A DNA stretch of 64,000 nucleotides from Phaeocystidibacter marisrubri (GTDB taxonomy: Bacteria > Bacteroidota > Bacteroidia > Flavobacteriales > Schleiferiaceae): contig NZ_WBVQ01000002.1 in the NCBI RefSeq assembly GCF_008933165.1, positions 1,015,569-1,079,568 of the forward strand, given 5' to 3'. Shown piece by piece: positions 3,050-12,776 of this stretch. The stretch's first letter is position 1. Each line of letters starts with the position of its first letter. Below the pieces are notes generated by a model. The model ran no database searches. It saw only the letters and a program-made list of their open reading frames with translations, and was not told the origin of the DNA. The position numbers and the translations under genes were made by a program.

Positions 3050-6025
3050 ATGCTAAAATTCCTTGTTGGATTCTCACTCTTCATTTTGACATTCTATTCA
3101 GCGATGGCGCAATCGCGAACCTTTGCTAAGGTTCCAATTCCGGGTCAACCTCTTTCCAGATTTGATGCCCCAAAAATTGGTGGTTTTGGTTTTGGCGACT
3201 TTAATGGCGATGGTTATGACGATGCTGTAATTTCCGGCCAAGGTGTAGGTTATGGTCCAGAATACGAAACATCTATCTATCTCAATGATGGAAGAGGAAG
3301 CTTGTCTGAAGGACCTTATCAATGCTTACCCGATGCCTGGGGTCGTCCTCATTTTGCTTGGGATGTTGACAATGATGGAGACGTAGATTTGCTCGTTTGT
3401 AATTTGAAAAATGATGTTTCAGCAGAGTTATACCTAAACGATGGTACAGGCTTATTTGATTTAGATACTGCAGTTGTATTTCCAGTGCTTTTTGGAGCAA
3501 CTGTTTTTGTTGAAGATGTTAATTCAGATGGCGAAAAGGACATTTTAATAAGTGGAGCCCAAAACTCAAACGGAGGAAACTTAGTTTTTCACCTATATAC
3601 TGGAAGTGCTAATGGTTCTTTTGTTAGTCAGAACAACTCATTTGCTCCTGTCTACCGAGGGGCGATGGATGTTGGGGATTTCGATGCAGATGGAGATAAC
3701 GATCTTGTTGTAGTAGGAGAATCTAATGGTTTGCCATTGCTCAAGTTTTACTCAAACCAAGGTAACTTGAACTTCACTGAAATCACGCATTTTATGTGGC
3801 CAGCTAAATCGCCAAGTAATTATACCCCTCTGGAAAGGGCAGATGTGAAATTCGGAAATATTAATGGAGATTCTTATCTCGACTTGGCAGTGATTGGGAT
3901 AGATCATAATGGCGACTCTAGAACCTCAGTATACACGAATAACTTAGGCAGTTCTTTTACGGAAGTATCAATCCCGCAACTGGCAGACTTGGAGAGTGGA
4001 GAAATTTATTTGACTGAAGTGACTGGAGATACACTCAATGATATTGTCATTCGCGGTCAAATTGATTTTTGGAACAAGGAGGCCGCTGTGATAAAACAAA
4101 CGGCTTCGGGCTGGGTTCTGCTTCCAAATGTTGGCATTGATGTTTTAGAGAGTGGGACTTCTGCTATGCATGATATTGATAATGATGGCGATATGGACTT
4201 CTTCTCTGCTGGAGGTTACCGTACCCCTCATGTAATCACCAATACAAAGCAAATTACTCGGCAGTACATGAATGAGCAAGATGGGACCTTTTCTTTAGCT
4301 CTAGGAACACAGTTCAATTCCAAGTTTGCTTCTTATAAAGCCTTTGCCGACTTTAATAGTGATGGCTATCAGGATTTTATTCTGTCAAGACAGGTTCTTC
4401 CAAGTTCAAACTCGGTTTCCATATATCTTAATAATCAGAACAATACGTTTACTGAAACCCCAACAAGTATTTCACAGCCCGTTACGTATGTATGTGTAGC
4501 AGATTTTAACGGAGATGGATTTCAAGATTTGGTGGCTCCTTCTAGAACAGGGAATAACCGGCTAAGTGTATTTTTTGGAACCTCTAACCTAGGAGTTTAC
4601 TCCAGTCCTGTAGATTACGCATTGTACGACTATGAAGGTGGTTTGCATCTAGCAGATATAAATCAAGATGGTCACATGGATATTTGCTTTTTCGATAAAA
4701 TAGGGAGTAATAATCCATTTGAGTTGAAGTTTTTGATCAATAATGGTTCGGGAGTTTTTGCCTCTGCAACTACTGTAGATGCTCCAATTATAGATCGACT
4801 AAATGCAGCGGTTAAGTATGCAGATTTTGATGGGGACGGAGAGCTAGACGTTTTTGTAACGAGCAGGTTGCCCTATACTGGAGAAGCTCACCTTTATTTG
4901 CAGAATTCCTTCAGTTTTGCAGAGGATACAGCCTTTACCTTTCCTAGTGTTCCAGCCTCTGATGCCAGAACCGCTGTTGGTGATTTTGATGGAAATGGTT
5001 TGTTAGACGCTCTAATCATAGGTGATCTTAATGGAGGAACAGGAGGGGGAGTCAGTCACTTGCTCTTTCAGGATTCTATTGGGTATTATTCTGCTCATAC
5101 ATCATCTGGCCTACCCGTTTTAGAATGGGGTACTTTAGATACTGCAGATGTTGATTTGGATGGCGATTTAGACCTCCTATACCTAGGTTATCATGATCCT
5201 GATCGAACATATAGACATGACGTTTATATTAATGATGGAACAGGGACATTCAGTCCAGGCGAGTTTGTGGATATTCATATGGTCCAGAATAGCTGGTTCA
5301 TGGATACTGATAATGATGGTGACCAAGACATCGTTCAAGCAGGTTATGCTCCAGAAATAAGTGAAGAGATTGGAGCGGTAATCGAGAATAAGTCTTGTAG
5401 CGTGCAAAATTCAACTACTCAGCTTTCAGTTTGCGATCCATATGAATGGCCTATAACAGGTTGTACATATTCTTCTTCAGGAGTTTATTCCTACTCACAC
5501 TTTGATGGCTCAGGTTGTTATGTTACTCAATCTTTAGATTTAAATTTTGAAGGCGCTTCAGCCGATGTTCGTATTCAACCTGATACAGGTCTGTTCTCAA
5601 TTGGACAATACGAATCATATCAATGGTTTTCATGTGACAGCATTTTAATGCCACTACTTGGCGACACTGCTCAGTCGTTCATTCCATCAAAATCAGGTCA
5701 ATATGCATTGGTAGTAAGCAATGGATCTTGTTCCGATACATCGGAGTGCATCCAATTCAACTTTTTGAATGTTGATGAGTTTAGAAGAAACCAGATTAGT
5801 ATTGCTCCAAACCCTACCTCAGGATTGGTCTATATCCAGAACCTGCAGAGCACTTGTAGTTACCGTTTGTATGATTCGCGTGGTGTTTTATTACAGAAAG
5901 GTTTCGTTTCACGAGATTCTGACTCTATTCGGATTTCGTCGCAACACAGTGGAATCTATGTTCTATACTTGTCTGATGCTGAAAGGGGCCTCACAGAAGT
6001 GCACAGGGTAATCCTAACAAGATAG
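3050..6025 (+). CDS. Secreted FG-GAP/VCBS repeat protein with T9SS sorting domain
   Basis: This 991-residue protein starts with a signal peptide (about residues 1-20, ending AMAQ). It then carries many calcium-binding FG-GAP/VCBS-type repeats with DxDxDG cores, for example DFNGDGYDD, DVDNDGDVD, DFDADGDND, DINQDGHMD and DVDLDGDLD, which predict one or more integrin-like beta-propellers outside the cell. A Cys-containing region follows (about residues 785-900). The C-terminus is a type A T9SS sorting domain (ISIAPNPTSGLVYI, about residue 915, to the end RVILTR). It should cross the outer membrane by the T9SS and be surface-attached or released; the ligand is unknown. A paralogue follows 30 bases downstream, so the two look like an operon. 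Confidence 0.9.
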   Translation: MLKFLVGFSLFILTFYSAMAQSRTFAKVPIPGQPLSRFDAPKIGGFGFGDFNGDGYDDAVISGQGVGYGPEYETSIYLNDGRGSLSEGPYQCLPDAWGRPHFAWDVDNDGDVDLLVCNLKNDVSAELYLNDGTGLFDLDTAVVFPVLFGATVFVEDVNSDGEKDILISGAQNSNGGNLVFHLYTGSANGSFVSQNNSFAPVYRGAMDVGDFDADGDNDLVVVGESNGLPLLKFYSNQGNLNFTEITHFMWPAKSPSNYTPLERADVKFGNINGDSYLDLAVIGIDHNGDSRTSVYTNNLGSSFTEVSIPQLADLESGEIYLTEVTGDTLNDIVIRGQIDFWNKEAAVIKQTASGWVLLPNVGIDVLESGTSAMHDIDNDGDMDFFSAGGYRTPHVITNTKQITRQYMNEQDGTFSLALGTQFNSKFASYKAFADFNSDGYQDFILSRQVLPSSNSVSIYLNNQNNTFTETPTSISQPVTYVCVADFNGDGFQDLVAPSRTGNNRLSVFFGTSNLGVYSSPVDYALYDYEGGLHLADINQDGHMDICFFDKIGSNNPFELKFLINNGSGVFASATTVDAPIIDRLNAAVKYADFDGDGELDVFVTSRLPYTGEAHLYLQNSFSFAEDTAFTFPSVPASDARTAVGDFDGNGLLDALIIGDLNGGTGGGVSHLLFQDSIGYYSAHTSSGLPVLEWGTLDTADVDLDGDLDLLYLGYHDPDRTYRHDVYINDGTGTFSPGEFVDIHMVQNSWFMDTDNDGDQDIVQAGYAPEISEEIGAVIENKSCSVQNSTTQLSVCDPYEWPITGCTYSSSGVYSYSHFDGSGCYVTQSLDLNFEGASADVRIQPDTGLFSIGQYESYQWFSCDSILMPLLGDTAQSFIPSKSGQYALVVSNGSCSDTSECIQFNFLNVDEFRRNQISIAPNPTSGLVYIQNLQSTCSYRLYDSRGVLLQKGFVSRDSDSIRISSQHSGIYVLYLSDAERGLTEVHRVILTR

Positions 6026-6055
6026 TATCCGCTTTAAGTATCTAATCTCTCAATA

Positions 6056-8560
6056 ATGAAGAAGTTTTTATTTTTCCTACTAGCATCCTTGTTGAATTTA
6101 TCGACTTTTCAGTCGATCGCTCAAGGTGTTAATTTCGAACTCATGGGAAGCTTTGGCCCACATGAACAAGTCAAAGTTGAGTTGGATCAGTTGTACGACC
6201 CTATGTCAGATATTGGTGATGTAGATGGAGATGGTGACTTAGACATCATCATTGCAGGTGAAACGGGTTCCACGAGCAGAATTACCAAGATTTACTTGTA
6301 TAACGGTAGCGATAGTTACGATAGTCTGGCTGGAATAGGTATCATTGGAGTATTGCCACGAGCTCTACGTTTGATTGACTTGGATGGTGATTCAGATTTG
6401 GATGTTTTCATAGCTGGGATTACCTCCTCCAACCAAAGCGTTACAAGAATATACACTAACGATGGCACGGGGGGTTTTACTCAAATAAGTTCTTCTCAAT
6501 TACCTTCTGATATATGGTCTGCTGAATTCGGTGATCTCGATAATGATGGAGATGTTGATCTCGTTTTATCAACTTCTAGCTTCAACGTGGTAATCTTTGA
6601 CAATGATAGCAATGCTTCATTTTCGCTTAGGAGTGGATTAAGCTTACCGCAATTAAAGGCCGACGATATTGAGCTTGCTGATATTAATTATGACTCATTC
6701 ATAGATATTGTTTACGCAGGTAGCGTGCCTGGAGGGGCAGCAGGTCAGCTTCATGCTGTTTATAATGATTCCAATTCTGGATTTACAAGTTACCTTCTAA
6801 ATCAGGCTTCATTTTTACCAAATGGAGGCATCAAATGTGCTAATTACAATGGCGACAGTTTGATGGATATACTGTACGTTGGTGATGCGGTTTCGGGACT
6901 TTTACTTCTTCAAGACTCAACAGGAGTCTTTTCGTTAAAATCAAATATTTACCCACAAGGAGTGCTCAATCCAACAATTTACGCGTATGATCGTGATGGT
7001 GATGGAGATGAGGACATCTTAGTGTTAGGAGTTAACAGAAGCGGGGTTACTGTATATCATACATTCTATGATAACTATGGAGATGGCAGTTTTAGTCCTG
7101 TTAGTGGACACGGTTTAGATGCTCGGTTGCCAAATTTTACTCCAAGATATTTTAGTTCACAATTGGCAGATTTCAATGGTGATGGTGAGTTGGATATTCT
7201 CGGGGGTAGAGACCCAGGTGTTTGGGACTTGTACCATGGTCATAGTAATGGAAAATTCTACCATGCTTCCCTGTCGAGTTTTGGTAATATTACTGCTCAG
7301 AACCAAGCTGTGGCAGATTTCAATTCTGACGGCGCCTTGGATATTGTGGTGGTTAATTATGATTCGACCCGTGTATATTTTAATTCTGGAACAGGAACGT
7401 TTCCTACATCAAAAGGCCTAGATCATTTCTCTTATTATTGGGGAGATATTGCTACTGGAGACTTCGATAATGATGGCGATGAAGATATTGTATTTTCTGG
7501 TTCCTTTGATGTGACTAAGATATTCTGGAACAATGGTTCTGGAGATTTCTCTTCCGCACCTACACTTTTTACAGAAATGTTCCAACAAGCTAATATTGAA
7601 GTGTTTGATGTAGATAATGATGCTGATTTGGATATTCTAGTAACAGGTGCATCTAACAGTAGTTATGAGAATACGGCATTGTACATCAATAATGGATCTG
7701 GTCAATTTGTGGTAAAGCAGAACTCTGGTATTCCTCCAACTTGGGGTTCAACTTCTGCTCAGGGAGATATAGATCTTGATGGTGATATTGACTTGGTTCT
7801 CACAGGAAGTCCAGGGAGTAGCATTTATTTAAATGATGGACAGGGTGTTTTCACAACTGCACCGATGCCTTTTTCAACTAATTTCATTATGCCTTTTTGT
7901 GAGTTGGTTGATTTCAATGGAGATAGCTTGCCTGATATGTTTGCTAGTAGAGGTTCAACTCCAGATGCCACAATATTTGAGAATTTAGGTGATGGTTCAT
8001 TTGCCTATCGTACGCGATTTGGCTTGCTAACTCAGATGATTATTTGTGATGCTAATCATGATGGCTTTCCAGACATCTTGACCGGAGGGAAAGTTTATGT
8101 AAACGACGGGCCAGGTAATTTTACTTTTACACTTGAATCTAATACTGGTATTCGCACAGAGAACAGCTCTGGCGGGCTCGGTATTGCTGCCGATTTTGAT
8201 GGAGATACAGATGATGATATTTTTTATGCTTCAGCATATGGATATCAGGGTAATTTCTATTTACGCTACACTCAGCTATATAGAAATATGGCAGTTGGAC
8301 TATCTGTCGTAGAGAATACAAGCCGTCAACAAGGGATTAGTCCATATCCAAATCCTATGGTGAGTGATGCAACGGTTGATCTTCCAGAAGGGACATTTAG
8401 TGGTCAAATCATTGAAGTGTCAGGCCGCATTGTTCGTCAGATTAACAATGCTTCTGGTAATCTTGTAATAGAGCGTGAGGGTTTGAACATAGGTGCTTAT
8501 GTGTTAGTGCTTACAGGGGAAAACGGCGAAAGCTTTACAACTAAGTTTTTGGTGCAGTAA
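6056..8560 (+). CDS. Secreted FG-GAP/VCBS repeat protein with T9SS sorting domain (paralogue)
   Basis: This 834-residue protein has a signal peptide (about 1-22, ending IAQG) and a long array of FG-GAP/VCBS calcium-binding loops such as DVDGDGDLD, DLDNDGDVD, DFNGDGELD and DIDLDGDIDL. It ends in a short T9SS-type sorting domain containing ISPYPNPMVSDATV (about residue 760) and a final TKFLVQ. It resembles the upstream 991-residue protein in design but lacks that protein's Cys-containing insert. The 30-base gap suggests cotranscription, and a good terminator follows at 8572-8603. The likely location is the cell surface. No enzyme motif is visible, and adhesion or matrix binding is only an inference from the fold. 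Confidence 0.88.
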   Translation: MKKFLFFLLASLLNLSTFQSIAQGVNFELMGSFGPHEQVKVELDQLYDPMSDIGDVDGDGDLDIIIAGETGSTSRITKIYLYNGSDSYDSLAGIGIIGVLPRALRLIDLDGDSDLDVFIAGITSSNQSVTRIYTNDGTGGFTQISSSQLPSDIWSAEFGDLDNDGDVDLVLSTSSFNVVIFDNDSNASFSLRSGLSLPQLKADDIELADINYDSFIDIVYAGSVPGGAAGQLHAVYNDSNSGFTSYLLNQASFLPNGGIKCANYNGDSLMDILYVGDAVSGLLLLQDSTGVFSLKSNIYPQGVLNPTIYAYDRDGDGDEDILVLGVNRSGVTVYHTFYDNYGDGSFSPVSGHGLDARLPNFTPRYFSSQLADFNGDGELDILGGRDPGVWDLYHGHSNGKFYHASLSSFGNITAQNQAVADFNSDGALDIVVVNYDSTRVYFNSGTGTFPTSKGLDHFSYYWGDIATGDFDNDGDEDIVFSGSFDVTKIFWNNGSGDFSSAPTLFTEMFQQANIEVFDVDNDADLDILVTGASNSSYENTALYINNGSGQFVVKQNSGIPPTWGSTSAQGDIDLDGDIDLVLTGSPGSSIYLNDGQGVFTTAPMPFSTNFIMPFCELVDFNGDSLPDMFASRGSTPDATIFENLGDGSFAYRTRFGLLTQMIICDANHDGFPDILTGGKVYVNDGPGNFTFTLESNTGIRTENSSGGLGIAADFDGDTDDDIFYASAYGYQGNFYLRYTQLYRNMAVGLSVVENTSRQQGISPYPNPMVSDATVDLPEGTFSGQIIEVSGRIVRQINNASGNLVIEREGLNIGAYVLVLTGENGESFTTKFLVQ

Positions 8561-8571
8561 ACGGAACTCAT

Positions 8572-8606
8572 AAAAAGCCTGGTCATCACGACTGGGCTTT
8601 TTTCGT
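8572..8606 (+). terminator. Terminator after FG-GAP genes (first copy)
   Basis: AAAAAGCCTGGTC pairs, with two G-T wobbles, with GACTGGGCTTTTTT across loop ATCAC, followed by T residues. A near-identical copy lies at 8741-8775, 169 bases further on. Confidence 0.8.
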
Positions 8607-8611
8607 TTATA

Positions 8612-8735
8612 CTCTTAGCTCAGCTGGTTAGAGTCCCGCAGCCGACCGATTAATTAGAGTCCCGCACATGCGGGATTGGTTCGAGCCCAAGTTGAGCTTG
8701 CGAAATGTTGACCGCAGCGTCAGTAAGGAGGAGCA
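8612..8735 (+). pseudogene. Degenerate tRNA copy
   Basis: The D arm (TTAGCTCAGCTGGTTAGAG, about 8615-8633) and the T arm (TTGGTTCGAGCCCAAG, 8676-8691) match tRNA-Asn at 2798-2871. The anticodon arm is replaced by a GC-rich segment in which AGAGTCCCGCA occurs twice, and the acceptor stem is lost. Sequence like the tRNA 3' end (AGGAGGAGCA) reappears at 8726-8735, after the flanking repeat. It cannot fold as a functional tRNA. Confidence 0.65.
8690..8735 (+). repeat. tRNA-flanking repeat, right copy
   Basis: This copy of the 2928-2973 segment (shared core GTTGAGCTTGCGAAATG) lies just after the degenerate T arm. Confidence 0.6.
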
Positions 8736-8775
8736 AAAAGAAAGCCTGGTCATTACGACTGGGCTTTTTTCGTTT
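8736..8775 (+). terminator. Terminator (second copy)
   Basis: The hairpin AAAGCCTGGTC-ATTAC-GACTGGGCTTTTTT repeats the terminator at 8572-8606 with a single loop change. The two copies show a duplication with a period of 169 bases around the degenerate tRNA. Confidence 0.7.
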
Positions 8776-8840
8776 ATGTGCTCAGCTCGTTTCACGCAGT
8801 AGCGGGACAGGGGATAGAGTAGGTCGGCTAACAGATTGGT

Positions 8841-9158
8841 TTGAGATCTAAAACCACGCGAAGGGATTCGCGCGGTAGCGGGGGGGGTTACAGTGCTGAG
8901 GTCGATAAATATTTGCCTGATGCAAATGACAGAGTGGATATGACAGGTTACAATTATGAAAGCAAGCCGGGATACTTTAACTTTGACTATGGATGGTATG
9001 ACGATAGGGGTGCAGGGACTTGGTGGCATGCTAATCACATGGAACCTGGAATGAAAGTTTACACGAGTTCACTGAGGTATTATTCACGACCACTTCTAGA
9101 CTTCAATCGGCAAATATTTGGAGTGGCCATTTCTACTATGCCCAAGCCAGGGCCTTAA
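8841..9158 (+). pseudogene. Orphan C-terminal fragment, possible polymorphic-toxin tail
   Basis: An open frame begins at a TTG (8841), and the protein-like part starts at about 8890. It is rich in Tyr, Trp and Gly (GYNYESKPGYFNFDYG, TWWHANHMEPG) and ends at 9158. There is no signal peptide and no good start, so it looks like the 3' end of a larger gene whose front is gone. It is followed after 10 bases by a broken lipoprotein gene, the same order (toxin-like tail, then exported small protein) seen twice more downstream. I do not recognise the domain; calling it a toxin tail is an inference from context. Confidence 0.35.
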
Positions 9159-9168
9159 TCTTTATCAG

Positions 9169-9486
9169 ATGAAACTTTTTTTTGCAACATTATTAATGCT
9201 TTCAAATTGCTATACAATGAACAATCAAGTTATGACGACTATTGAGGGTGTGGCTGGCAATTCAAAAGGTGGAGCTATGGTCATTACCGACCAAGGAACT
9301 CCTTAATTTATTGAGGGAAAGGATAACTGGAGCTTCGAAATGGTTGGAGTCAGGGTGAAGGTTACTGGGGATGTCATGGAGATAAAACATGAGGAGTCCC
9401 AGGAAACTTCTGTACAAAGCCAAAGAATAGAAGGAGGCTATTTCCTGATAAAATCTCCAACAATAGAAGTGGTTACGACCAATTAG
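9169..9486 (+). pseudogene. Small lipoprotein gene interrupted by an in-frame stop
   Basis: The ATG at 9169 opens a lipoprotein-like start (MKLFFATLLMLSNC, lipobox Cys at residue 14) that reads for 45 codons to a TAA at 9304-9306. The same frame then stays open for 59 more codons with protein-like content (FIEGKDNWSFEMVGVRVKVT) to a TAG at 9484-9486. One base change at TAA (for example from TAT/TAC) would restore a 105-residue protein. The second half reads like a small beta-strand OB-type fold, but I do not recognise the family. By position it is a candidate immunity or partner gene of the fragment upstream. Translation of only the first 45 residues is the alternative. Confidence 0.55.
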
Positions 9487-9509: not shown

Positions 9510-10463
9510 TGTTTACTCTGTCAAAATGCATATGGAGCAACAGTCTACAGGTTTAACGGTAAGGAGTTGGATCAAGAGACAGGGTACGCCTACTATGGGG
9601 CGAGGTATTATGATAATAGATTGAGTACGTTCTTAAGCGTTGATGCTTTGTCGATGAGAGAACCTTCCATTAATGCATATGCTTTCGTCGGGAACAATCC
9701 ACTGTCGTACGTTGATCCAGATGGTAATTTCAGGATTCCAACAGAATTTAGAAATGCTTATCCAAATTTGACTAGATACATTGAAGAAAATTTGTATCAA
9801 CAATTGAATAGTGATGAAAGGTTCTTTAACACCATGCGCGAGGCTTTCGCCTTAGGAAATTTTAGCGCGGAATTTGCAGACGTTGAACTCACTAAGGAAC
9901 TATTCGTAGAGATGTTTTCGAAAAATTCAGGCCCAACTTTAATTGCAACTAGGGCACCATGGGGCAATCCTGCGGCAAAGGGATATACCGATTCCCCTGG
10001 GGGATCTTATATACGGCCCCTTTCTGAATTAGAAATTAATTTGAATTCTGTTTTATTACAAGGTGTAGAAGATGCACTCGCAGATGAAAATCGTTCGGCA
10101 ACATCTAAACGTTATTATTTATTCATTTTATTACAAACTTTACTTCATGAACCTCTTCACGCTGCTGAAATATCATTAACAGGGGAAATGGTGAAAAGTG
10201 TTTATGGAAGTCACCTTGGTGATGAGTTTACGAAAATGATGTGGGGAGAAACACGAGAAATGAAACGATCTTCAGAGTATGAAGGTGAATCTTGGTATGC
10301 AGCATTTATTCAAAATTCTACAGCGTTGCCTATTTCAACATCTGAATGGTGTGGTACTGGTATAGATCACGACAGTCAAGCATATAAAAATGCTGGAGCA
10401 ATAATTACAATTCTCGAAGAGCATCAATCTGAAAGAGCCGAAACTTTACCGACTTATCCGTAA
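9510..10463 (+). CDS. RHS core fragment with C-terminal HExxH domain (toxin candidate)
   Basis: The frame is open from 9510 with no normal start codon (first in-frame TTG at 9567). It begins inside a classic RHS-repeat core: FNGKELDQETGYAYYGARYYD, then NAYAFVGNNPLSYVDPDGN, the site after which variable toxin domains are attached. The remaining roughly 240 residues carry LLHEPLHAAE, an HExxH zinc-protease-like motif (bases 10146-10160, His213 and His217 of the visible frame), with an acidic EYEGESW about 50 residues later that could supply a third ligand. Most of the RHS protein is missing upstream, so this is either a dead remnant or an orphan toxin cassette. The gene 12 bases downstream encodes an exported protein that could be the immunity partner. 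Confidence 0.7.
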   Translation, partial: CLLCQNAYGATVYRFNGKELDQETGYAYYGARYYDNRLSTFLSVDALSMREPSINAYAFVGNNPLSYVDPDGNFRIPTEFRNAYPNLTRYIEENLYQQLNSDERFFNTMREAFALGNFSAEFADVELTKELFVEMFSKNSGPTLIATRAPWGNPAAKGYTDSPGGSYIRPLSELEINLNSVLLQGVEDALADENRSATSKRYYLFILLQTLLHEPLHAAEISLTGEMVKSVYGSHLGDEFTKMMWGETREMKRSSEYEGESWYAAFIQNSTALPISTSEWCGTGIDHDSQAYKNAGAIITILEEHQSERAETLPTYP

Positions 10464-11471: not shown

Positions 11472-11590
11472 GCTCCCTCTTTTAGTCCGCCTACAAACGA
11501 AAAAGAAGATTGAGACAGATGAAACCGCATAAACACTAACGTCGGAAACGAGGGCTGACGCAAGGACCTGTGGCAATGGCTTCGCAATGT
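11472..11590. repeat. Interspersed repeat, left module, copy 1
   Basis: This segment from CTCCCTCTTTTAGTCCGCC to TTCGCAATGT recurs at 12562-12687 and, in part, at 12732-12776. Shared blocks include TTTAGTCCGCC, AAACGAAAAAGA, ATAAACACTA, GGAAACGAGGGCTG and CGCAATGT. It probably derives from one end of a mobile element. Confidence 0.65.
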
Positions 11591-11686: not shown

Positions 11687-12115
11687 ATACAATGGAGTTC
11701 CATTAGTCTATATGAAGTTAAAGGTAAATATGAAGTCTCTACAACTCAATGGCTTAATCCGGATGTGTTATTATTGCTCGATGAAGCAGCAGGATTTCCT
11801 GAAGGCGAGCATGCACTTCACGAAATAACAGAATCCTACATAGCAGGCCTAAATTCAAGTAATTCAGGTGTAGCAGCCCGTGCAAATAACGGTGAGTATA
11901 ATGCACAATATGAAAAAGCTCACAAAAGTCCTTTAGTTCCAAATATTCCGAGGCCTACTATTCGAGTAAGACATATGAATTCAAGGACTAATGAGGAATA
12001 TACTCAAGAGAACCCCTACCCTCGTGGAGGGGCGCCTTTGAGGCAAGATTATGAACTACATAACCCCAATCTAGATGAATACCAAAAATTATTCTTTATT
12101 ATCATATATTTTTAA
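11687..12115 (+). pseudogene. Toxin-domain remnant with HEITE motif
   Basis: The frame is open from 11654, with protein-like sequence from about 11687 to the stop at 12113-12115, but no sensible start. It runs from YEVKGKYEVSTTQWLNPD through DEAAGFPEGEHALHEITESY to YNAQYEKAHKSP. The HALHEITESY block resembles C-terminal domains found behind RHS or other polymorphic-toxin cores in Bacteroidota; I cannot name the family. The 5' end is cut off by the repeat module at 11602-11686, so this is a decayed cassette. It overlaps the start of the lipoprotein gene at 12075, which would then be its partner gene. Confidence 0.5.
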
Positions 12116-12602
12116 AATGCTCTTGATTTATGTTGTAGCCTCGTGCACTTTGACGGCAAAGAATCCAGCACAGAATGAAGTGAACCTTTATTGTCCAAAT
12201 GATTTAAATATTGTAGAAATTTATTGCTACTCTATTGGTGATAAATTAGATCAAGATCAATACTATACTATTGGCTTTTTTAGATACTCTATCAGTTCGA
12301 GAGAAATAACAAAAGATTCTCTGGAAACATTTCGCATGAGTGATGAATTCGTGATCTATCCATTTATGAATTCTTATAATTGCGAGTTTTACATGGCAAG
12401 TCGAGATACATTACTACTAGCAAAAGAAAAAAAAGAAATATCAAGACAGTTGATTACTAATATTCGCAAATTTGCAGATTTAACAGGAAATTGCTGTACT
12501 GATAATCATGATTCATCTGGAATTTTCTTGATTTCTTTTGACCAAGATATATGGAACCCATCTCCCCCTTTTAGTCCGCCTTTAAACGAAAAAGACGGTT
12601 AA
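12075..12602 (+). CDS. Small lipoprotein of unknown function, candidate immunity protein
   Basis: This 175-residue protein has a signal region MNTKNYSLLSYIFKMLLIY followed by a lipobox-like VVASC, so it is predicted to be a lipoprotein. The ATG at 12075 is preferred because an internal ATG at 12117 would leave almost no charged N-region. The mature part has several Cys residues (LYCPND, IYCYSIG, NCEFYM, NCCTDNH) and is not recognised. It overlaps the toxin remnant by 41 bases, a toxin/immunity arrangement. The last 14 or so residues (from SPPFSPPLNEK) are encoded by the repeat at 12562, so the original C-terminus has been replaced by an insertion. Function after that change is uncertain. Confidence 0.5.
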   Translation: MNTKNYSLLSYIFKMLLIYVVASCTLTAKNPAQNEVNLYCPNDLNIVEIYCYSIGDKLDQDQYYTIGFFRYSISSREITKDSLETFRMSDEFVIYPFMNSYNCEFYMASRDTLLLAKEKKEISRQLITNIRKFADLTGNCCTDNHDSSGIFLISFDQDIWNPSPPFSPPLNEKDG

Positions 12603-12687
12603 AACAGAAGTAACCGTATAAACACTAGCCTCGGAAACGAGGGCTGCGCAAGGACTCCGTAAGGGCTGACGCAGTGGCTGCGCAATG
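12562..12687. repeat. Interspersed repeat, left module, copy 2
   Basis: Second copy of the module at 11472-11590, with a short internal duplication (GGGCTG..CGCA occurs twice). It has invaded the 3' end of the lipoprotein gene at 12075. Confidence 0.65.
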
Positions 12688-12731: not shown

Positions 12732-12776
12732 ACTCCCTTTTTTAGTCCACCAACAAACGAAAAGGAAGATTGAGTG
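12732..12776. repeat. Interspersed repeat, left module, partial copy 3
   Basis: CTCCCTTTTTTAGTCCACCAACAAACGAAAAGGAAGATTGAG-like sequence matches the first 45 or so bases of the left module and is followed directly by the transposase-like fragment on the minus strand. Confidence 0.6.

What the first reader, a model, noticed from the sequence alone, without database searches (positions are those of the whole stretch)
9510..10463. RHS-linked putative metalloprotease toxin domain (HEPLH)
Downstream of the canonical RHS core (ending in DPDGN) sits a roughly 240-residue domain with LLHEPLHAAE, an HExxH motif, and an acidic EYEGESW region about 50 residues on that could complete a zinc site. I do not recognise the family, so it may be an unlisted zincin toxin.
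Basis: partly seen in the sequence, partly recalled or inferred. Interest (0 to 1): 0.65.

Follow-up and report, generated by a model that had tools for sequence, protein, structure and literature searches.

The report
Orphan Rhs metalloprotease-like toxin cassette
The stretch is a detached toxin tip of a bacterial Rhs weapon, distantly related to a catalogued family of zinc-protease toxins but altered at its presumed metal site, followed by a likely secreted antidote gene; it is a new, possibly worn-out member of a known kind.

Summary
In detail: one open frame (9510-10463, +) carries the last ~60 residues of an Rhs core and then a 244-residue tail with HEPLH at residues 213-217. But there is no Rhs gene in front of it. 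It is an orphan tip, one of 8 in this genome beside three giant Rhs frames, with shared sequence at both ends (core 3' end upstream; an ~80-bp repeat downstream).

The tail is not a wholly unlisted family. Its only found close homologue (31%, behind a different Rhs core, motif HETAH) matches Pfam Tox-MPTase3 just under threshold and scores E 1e-15 against a profile of seven Tox-MPTase3-type sequences. The window tail itself scores weakly (E 9e-4), above every shuffle. Of the published signature (K, HExxH, F[DE]) it keeps only HExxH, with a proline inside, and has FT where relatives have an acidic residue. Two AlphaFold models were too poor to judge the fold.

In 10 of 10 such loci the next ORF begins with a signal-peptide-like segment, which suggests a toxin acting in the cell envelope, like VgrG2b.

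Best reading: a silent, possibly eroded, Tox-MPTase3-like toxin/immunity cassette. Moderately low interest.

The parts
9534..9728 (+). 3' end of an Rhs core (YRFNGKELDQETGYAYYGARYYD...DPDGN), detached from any full Rhs gene; 5' boundary of the cassette
   Evidence: TIGR03696 E 9.2e-19 and 72.9 bits in the genome search; DNA 73-92% identical to core ends of other Rhs tails of the same genome from 9546 on
9729..10463 (+). 244-aa C-terminal toxin-like domain, divergent relative of Tox-MPTase3 (PF15639), with stop codon
   Evidence: 31% to L014 over residues 3-175 of the query, E 6.1e-14; profile-profile of this pair against five Tox-MPTase3-type sequences E 5.5e-10, score 67 against at most 17.8 in 200 shuffles; the tail alone 15.6 bits against at most 7.5 in 2000 shuffles
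10146..10160 (+).
   Evidence: aligned with HETAH, HESAH, HEFVH, HEYVH, HELVH, HESVH and HELAQ of the relatives
10218..10247 (+). GDEFTKMMWG, counterpart of the family's G..F[E/D]...[YF]G; Thr168 (10230-10232) stands where relatives have Glu or Asp
   Evidence: published signature 'K, HExxH, F[DE]' read in PMC3482391
10476..11447 (+). 323-aa ORF with a signal-peptide-like start, candidate immunity gene
   Evidence: 12 bases after the toxin stop; uncharged hydrophobic core 2.23; no family at a convincing score; no true relative found
11473..11557 (+). repeat at the 3' end of the cassette; further copies at 12562-12646 and 12733-12774
   Evidence: 8 copies in the genome, all within the three cassette loci
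8841..9158 (+). remnant of another tip: fragment resembling the C-terminal part of microbial transglutaminase
   Evidence: PF09017 E 9.3e-4, 19.1 bits, below its cut-off of 25
9169..9486 (+). candidate immunity remnant for the previous module, signal-peptide-like start, one in-frame stop inside
   Evidence: frame reading
11765..12115 (+). fragment of a further tip (ALHEITESYIAGL...)
   Evidence: sequence reading only; no family match above chance
12075..12602 (+). 175-aa ORF with a lipoprotein-like start, candidate immunity gene of the further tip; ends inside a copy of the repeat

Best explanation
This is an orphan Rhs toxin/immunity cassette: core 3' end, toxin tip, candidate immunity gene, 3' repeat. 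The tip descends from the Tox-MPTase3 zincin-like peptidase toxins. Shown here: the anatomy, the homology chain window - L014 - Tox-MPTase3, the cassette ends shared with other cassettes of the genome, and the signal-peptide-like start of the downstream ORF. Inferred: such tips act as peptidases in the envelope (periplasm) of a rival cell and are held off by an exported immunity protein; the cassette is silent where it lies because it has no N-terminal delivery part, and would be deployed only after recombination onto a full Rhs gene. In this copy the metal site looks eroded (Thr for Asp/Glu, proline inside HExxH), so I expect little or no peptidase activity from it.
For: Rhs core end and tail in one frame. 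Homology: L014 E 6.1e-14; L014 hits PF15639 at E 1.5e-4, 22.4 bits, cut-off 25; a profile of seven Tox-MPTase3-type sequences gives L014 54.4 bits, E 1.1e-15, and the window 15.6 bits, E 9e-4, best of 2000 shuffles 7.5; profile-profile E 5.5e-10. Orphan state: 11 Rhs core ends in the genome, 3 in frames of 3429-3610 aa and 8 in frames of 280-421 aa, this one 317. Cassette ends: core homology upstream and 3' repeat downstream shared with other cassettes; 8 of 8 genomic copies of the repeat lie in the three cassette loci. Envelope action: downstream ORF with a signal-peptide-like start in 10 of 10 Tox-MPTase3-type loci against 15 of 41 background ORFs. Precedents: orphan CT/immunity modules are real toxin/immunity pairs and generally lack translation starts (PMC3150448, passages read); a zincin toxin acting in the periplasm with an envelope immunity protein, VgrG2b/Tpe-Tpi (PMC6899460, passages read).
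Against: The window tail alone does not reach Pfam (no family at E up to 1), and its direct profile score is modest. No structure supports a zincin fold: models of mean pLDDT 41.8 and 46.2, no PDB fold match, no solved relative by sequence. The signal-peptide call is a home-made hydrophobicity rule whose threshold was set after seeing the candidates; some loci are related (L021, L022, L026), and 15 of 41 background ORFs also pass. Erosion is inferred from two residues; an undisturbed 244-codon frame argues that decay, if real, is recent or that the tail is still under selection.
Confidence: 0.6

Rival explanations
1. The tail is a working zincin with a rearranged metal site: Asp165 or Glu166, within a turn before Thr168, or a more distant acid supplies the third ligand, and proline in HExxH is tolerated.
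For: Asp165 is conserved in L014 (GDNLD); L018, L020 and L024 also have Glu at that place; the frame is intact over 244 codons.
Against: Asp165 is not conserved in L021, L022, L026 or L023; the F[DE] residue is the published one and is replaced only in the window copy. That proline is not found inside active HExxH motifs is recalled; my paper searches for it gave nothing or only the motif description without proline.
Confidence: 0.28
2. The tail has another fold and HEPLH is a chance motif.
For: No confident structure; no direct Pfam match.
Against: Expected chance count 0.011; HExxH lies in the same alignment column as in the relatives; profile scores above all shuffles.
Confidence: 0.07
3. 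The domain is a processing peptidase that releases another toxin.
For: Peptidase domains of this role exist in polymorphic toxins (PMC3482391, passages).
Against: It lies at the very C-terminus with nothing behind it; [quoted passage not shown]
Confidence: 0.05

Closest known systems
Tox-MPTase3 (PF15639), Zhang et al. 2012, PMC3482391
   Same: Rhs-linked C-terminal tail in Bacteroidota, YP.LT.Y start, G.GP (only GP in the window), HExxH, G..F...[YFW]G
   Different: Window copy: Thr for the acidic residue of F[DE], no Lys at the aligned place, proline in HExxH, about 70 extra C-terminal residues, below Pfam detection
VgrG2b C-terminal domain / Tpe-Tpi (PMC6899460)
   Same: Antibacterial HExxH toxin domain at the end of a delivery protein; small downstream gene for an envelope-located immunity protein
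   Different: Different family (DUF4157) and T6SS delivery; solved gluzincin with a Glu third ligand, which this copy lacks at the aligned place of its own family
Orphan CdiA-CT/CdiI and Rhs-CT/RhsI modules (PMC3150448)
   Same: Tip fragment with the end of the core, no proper start, immunity gene behind
   Different: Here the orphan cassettes share a ~80-bp 3' repeat, and two of the loci (window, L029) have no full Rhs gene in the stretch read
Peptidase M91 and DUF4344 (Pfam)
   Same: Weak matches of L014 around HExxH (E 0.038 and 0.0034)
   Different: Below cut-off; the window tail does not match

Membership tests
Tox-MPTase3 (PF15639) | Pfam gathering score | tested here: not met
   Window: no match. 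L014: 22.4 bits, cut-off 25.
Tox-MPTase3 (PF15639) | HExxH | tested here: met
   HEPLH in the aligned column, with an unusual proline.
Tox-MPTase3 (PF15639) | F[DE] after the motif | tested here: not met
   FT in the window (Thr168), LD in L014; F or W followed by E or D in the other seven rows.
Tox-MPTase3 (PF15639) | conserved Lys before the motif | tested here: inconclusive
   The likely column (IK.AL..G.GP) is Val in the window, Glu in L014, and also Tyr in L023 and Arg in L020; the paper's own alignment was not seen.
Tox-MPTase3 (PF15639) | Common descent over the domain | tested here: met
   Window-L014 E 6.1e-14, L014-profile E 1.1e-15, pair-profile E 5.5e-10.
Zincin fold (clan MA) | Both His and the Glu on one helix, third ligand near | tested here: inconclusive
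   Models of mean pLDDT 41.8 and 46.2; Foldseek best E 1.9.
Orphan Rhs-CT/RhsI module | Core end plus variable tip plus small downstream gene, without a full Rhs gene in frame | tested here: met
Orphan Rhs-CT/RhsI module | Toxicity neutralised by the downstream protein | not testable with these tools
   Needs expression tests.

The most novel reading that the evidence does not exclude
Tox-MPTase3-type tips as a group are envelope-acting peptidase toxins paired with exported (often lipoprotein) immunity proteins, for which no immunity was listed in 2012; this genome moves such tips as cassettes bounded by the Rhs core end and a dedicated ~80-bp 3' repeat; and the window copy is a tip whose metal site has been lost or rebuilt around another residue.
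Probability: 0.35. Interest if true: 0.5.

Novelty: new member of a known kind. Interest (0 to 1): 0.32.

Why it matters
It gives a place to a tail that profile libraries miss, suggests where a poorly studied family of toxin peptidases acts (the envelope, from its exported antidotes), and shows a compact cassette layout with repeats at the 3' ends that could be tested as units of toxin exchange. As a single finding it is one more polymorphic toxin tip, possibly inactive.

Tried and rejected
Direct Pfam, NCBIfam, PHROGs and PADLOC scans of the tail: nothing beyond the Rhs core end and weak chance-level rows. Tail against plasmids (one match at E 1) and phages (none); L014 tail, L021 and L018 against plasmids (none). 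Genome contigs: first scan nothing, second two loci: L016, the same contig as L014, and L017, which I rejected because the matched ORF reads as a polysaccharide export protein (family name recalled). Viral contigs: none; one search was not run (alignment not conserved enough).

Rows dropped before counts: L025 (HELVH in an ORF I take for an ArdC-like protein, recalled) and L027 (near-identical to L022). L019 was counted for its downstream ORF only, because its toxin is frameshifted; it is not in the alignments. L020 is partly masked upstream of the domain; the domain itself is not.

Weak matches of the 323-aa downstream ORF in two genomes turned out to be ORFs I recognise as methionyl-tRNA formyltransferase (recalled): rejected as chance. 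An alignment of five downstream ORFs (L021, L022, L026, L018, L014) shows only two invariant columns, so a common immunity family is not claimed.

Fold: two AlphaFold2 jobs (and 71/79) were too poor; one Foldseek run was meaningless, as expected for such a model.

Synteny: in both same-genus genomes the region upstream of the gatA-like gene holds none of the cassette genes, nor the genes on the other side of the cassettes, so there is no informative empty site.

Full report
Observation. The frame 9510-10463 (+) is open. Its first part is the end of an Rhs core: TIGR03696 matches residues 9-71 of the 9513-10460 frame with E 9.2e-19. By composition 0.011 HExxH are expected in such a tail, and it is the only one among 96 stop-free frames of 100 codons or more in the window. 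The upstream sequence has stops in all frames; the first start in frame is a TTG at 9567.

Genome setting. The genome (3.35 Mb, 22 contigs) has 11 core ends over the family's cut-off: three in frames of 3429, 3488 and 3610 aa, eight in frames of 280-421 aa, this one 317. DNA from 9546 onwards matches core ends in loci L028, L029 and L030 at 73-92%. Behind the candidate immunity gene lies a repeat (11473-11557) with further copies at 12562 and 12733. It occurs 8 times in the genome, and all 8 lie in the three cassette loci: 3 in the window, 3 at C2:1318843-1326877, 2 at C3:10733-12801. So the unit here is core end, tip, downstream ORF, repeat. The neighbours look like remnants of further units: a transglutaminase-like fragment (PF09017 E 9.3e-4, below cut-off) with a signal-peptide-like ORF broken by one stop in front, and a tip fragment with a lipoprotein-like ORF behind. 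In the two same-genus genomes none of the cassette genes lies upstream of the gatA-like gene, and neither of the two has a match to the tail.

Relatives of the tail. Among 88 genomes of the family, 2 match at E <= 0.01: the own genome and G023 (E 6.1e-14, 31%, residues 3-175). With the pair profile, 1 of 395 genomes of the phylum sample (own) and 2 of 395 of the order sample (own and G023) match at E <= 0.001. Its tail sits behind a different Rhs core end and carries HETAH. It matches PF15639 Tox-MPTase3 at E 1.5e-4, 22.4 bits, with the cut-off at 25, and DUF4344 and Peptidase_M91 more weakly.

Family test. PF15639 is sparse: 2 of 296 genomes of the order sample, 8 of 395 of the phylum sample, 6 over the cut-off, and 4 of 92 of the family of G361. 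From these I aligned seven tails (L018, L020, L021, L022, L026, L023, L024). L024 is itself under the cut-off (22.9 bits). A profile of the seven scores L014 54.4 bits (E 1.1e-15) and the window 15.6 bits (E 9e-4); the best of 2000 shuffles reaches 7.5. Profile-profile of the pair window+L014 against five of them gives E 5.5e-10, score 67.0, against at most 17.8 in 200 column shuffles; the window alone scores 36.8 against at most 20.3 in 200 shuffles. I conclude common descent, carried mainly by L014.

Catalytic signature. Zhang et al. 2012 (PMC3482391, passages read) give for Tox-MPTase3 'K, HExxH, F[DE]', no immunity protein, and Rhs among the associated repeats. In my alignment the acidic residue of F[DE] is Glu or Asp in all seven family rows and Asp in L014, but Thr168 in the window. 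The alignment of window and L014 is without gaps from GEMV to WGE, so the column is safe. The likely Lys column is Val in the window. The motif has proline at its third place; that proline is foreign to active HExxH motifs is recalled, and my searches did not find it in print. EYEGESW aligns with YVPKEGQ of L014 and with nothing consistent in the rest. L024 has HELAQ, so loss of motif residues is seen elsewhere too.

Structure. In both, the motif falls at the end of a predicted long helix (124-143 in the window model, 125-146 in the L016 model), at low confidence. Foldseek against the PDB gave a best E of 1.9, and sequence searches of solved structures found no relative.

Downstream genes. In 10 of 10 loci (window, L014, L018, L019, L020, L021, L022, L023, L024, L026) the ORF behind the tail begins with an uncharged hydrophobic core of mean hydropathy 2.23-3.61, some with a lipobox. 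By the same rule 15 of 41 longer ORFs of the rest of the window pass; ten of ten by chance would be 4e-5, but L021, L022 and L026 are related, the threshold (2.0) was set after the candidate values were seen, and for L024 an internal Met lies before the hydrophobic core. Of nine ORFs scored in the genome's other cassette arrays, seven pass, so the feature is not special to this family. Zhang et al. call Imm65 the only lipoprotein immunity in their collection. VgrG2b gives a tested precedent for a zincin toxin that acts in the periplasm with an envelope immunity protein (PMC6899460, passages read). The downstream ORF of the window has no convincing family match and no true relative in 296 genomes.

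Other zincin-like tips. The same genome's orphan tips include weak matches to Peptidase_M91 (E 6.7e-4 and 0.002, two overlapping frames of one tip), Tox-MPTase2 (0.02) and PipA (0.011), all below cut-off, and by eye HEVRH, HELDH and HEKQH. If they are real, this genome favours peptidase tips.

Mechanism. Shown: anatomy, descent, cassette ends, signal-like downstream ORFs. Inferred: delivery by an Rhs protein after recombination (orphan modules are known to be functional pairs that generally lack translation starts, PMC3150448, passages read), action in the envelope, and neutralisation by the downstream protein. In this copy the metal site is probably eroded; an alternative ligand (Asp165 or Glu166) is the main rival.

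Print. A search of the held library for the family names gave three papers: the 2012 catalogue, a 2024 paper on family relationships (one passage read, on Tox-MPTase5), and a 2025 T6SS survey seen in the listing only. Searches were used for context (listings; papers opened are named above). I found nothing there on immunity to Tox-MPTase3, but subscription papers are mostly not held.

Verdict. Observation confirmed; interpretation partly supported; a new, divergent and perhaps inactive member of a known kind.

Noticed in passing
window 8841-9158 and 9169-9486: Fragment like the C-terminal part of microbial transglutaminase (PF09017 E 9.3e-4) followed by a signal-peptide-like ORF with one internal stop: probably a decayed toxin/immunity module.
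   Followed up: partly
window 11473-11557, 12562-12646, 12733-12774; genome C2:1318843-1326877, C3:10733-12801: An ~80-bp repeat at the 3' ends of Rhs cassettes, 8 copies in the genome and none found elsewhere in it; in several downstream ORFs it encodes a shared ending like SP.FSPP.NEK.
   Followed up: partly
L029:7452-12248 and L028:11574-12365: Further orphan Rhs tips with HExxH-like motifs (HEKQH, HELDH, YEMSH, HEVRH) and weak M91, Tox-MPTase2 and PipA matches.
   Followed up: partly
L021, L022, L026: Tox-MPTase3 domains at the end of lipoprotein-like proteins without Rhs repeats, each followed by a small lipoprotein-like ORF.
   Followed up: partly
window 3050-8560: Two neighbouring FG-GAP repeat proteins with type IX secretion sorting tails (PF13517, PF18962/TIGR04183).
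   Followed up: no
window 8563-8621 and 8730-8788: A 59-bp direct repeat (83%) just in front of the cassette remnants.
   Followed up: no
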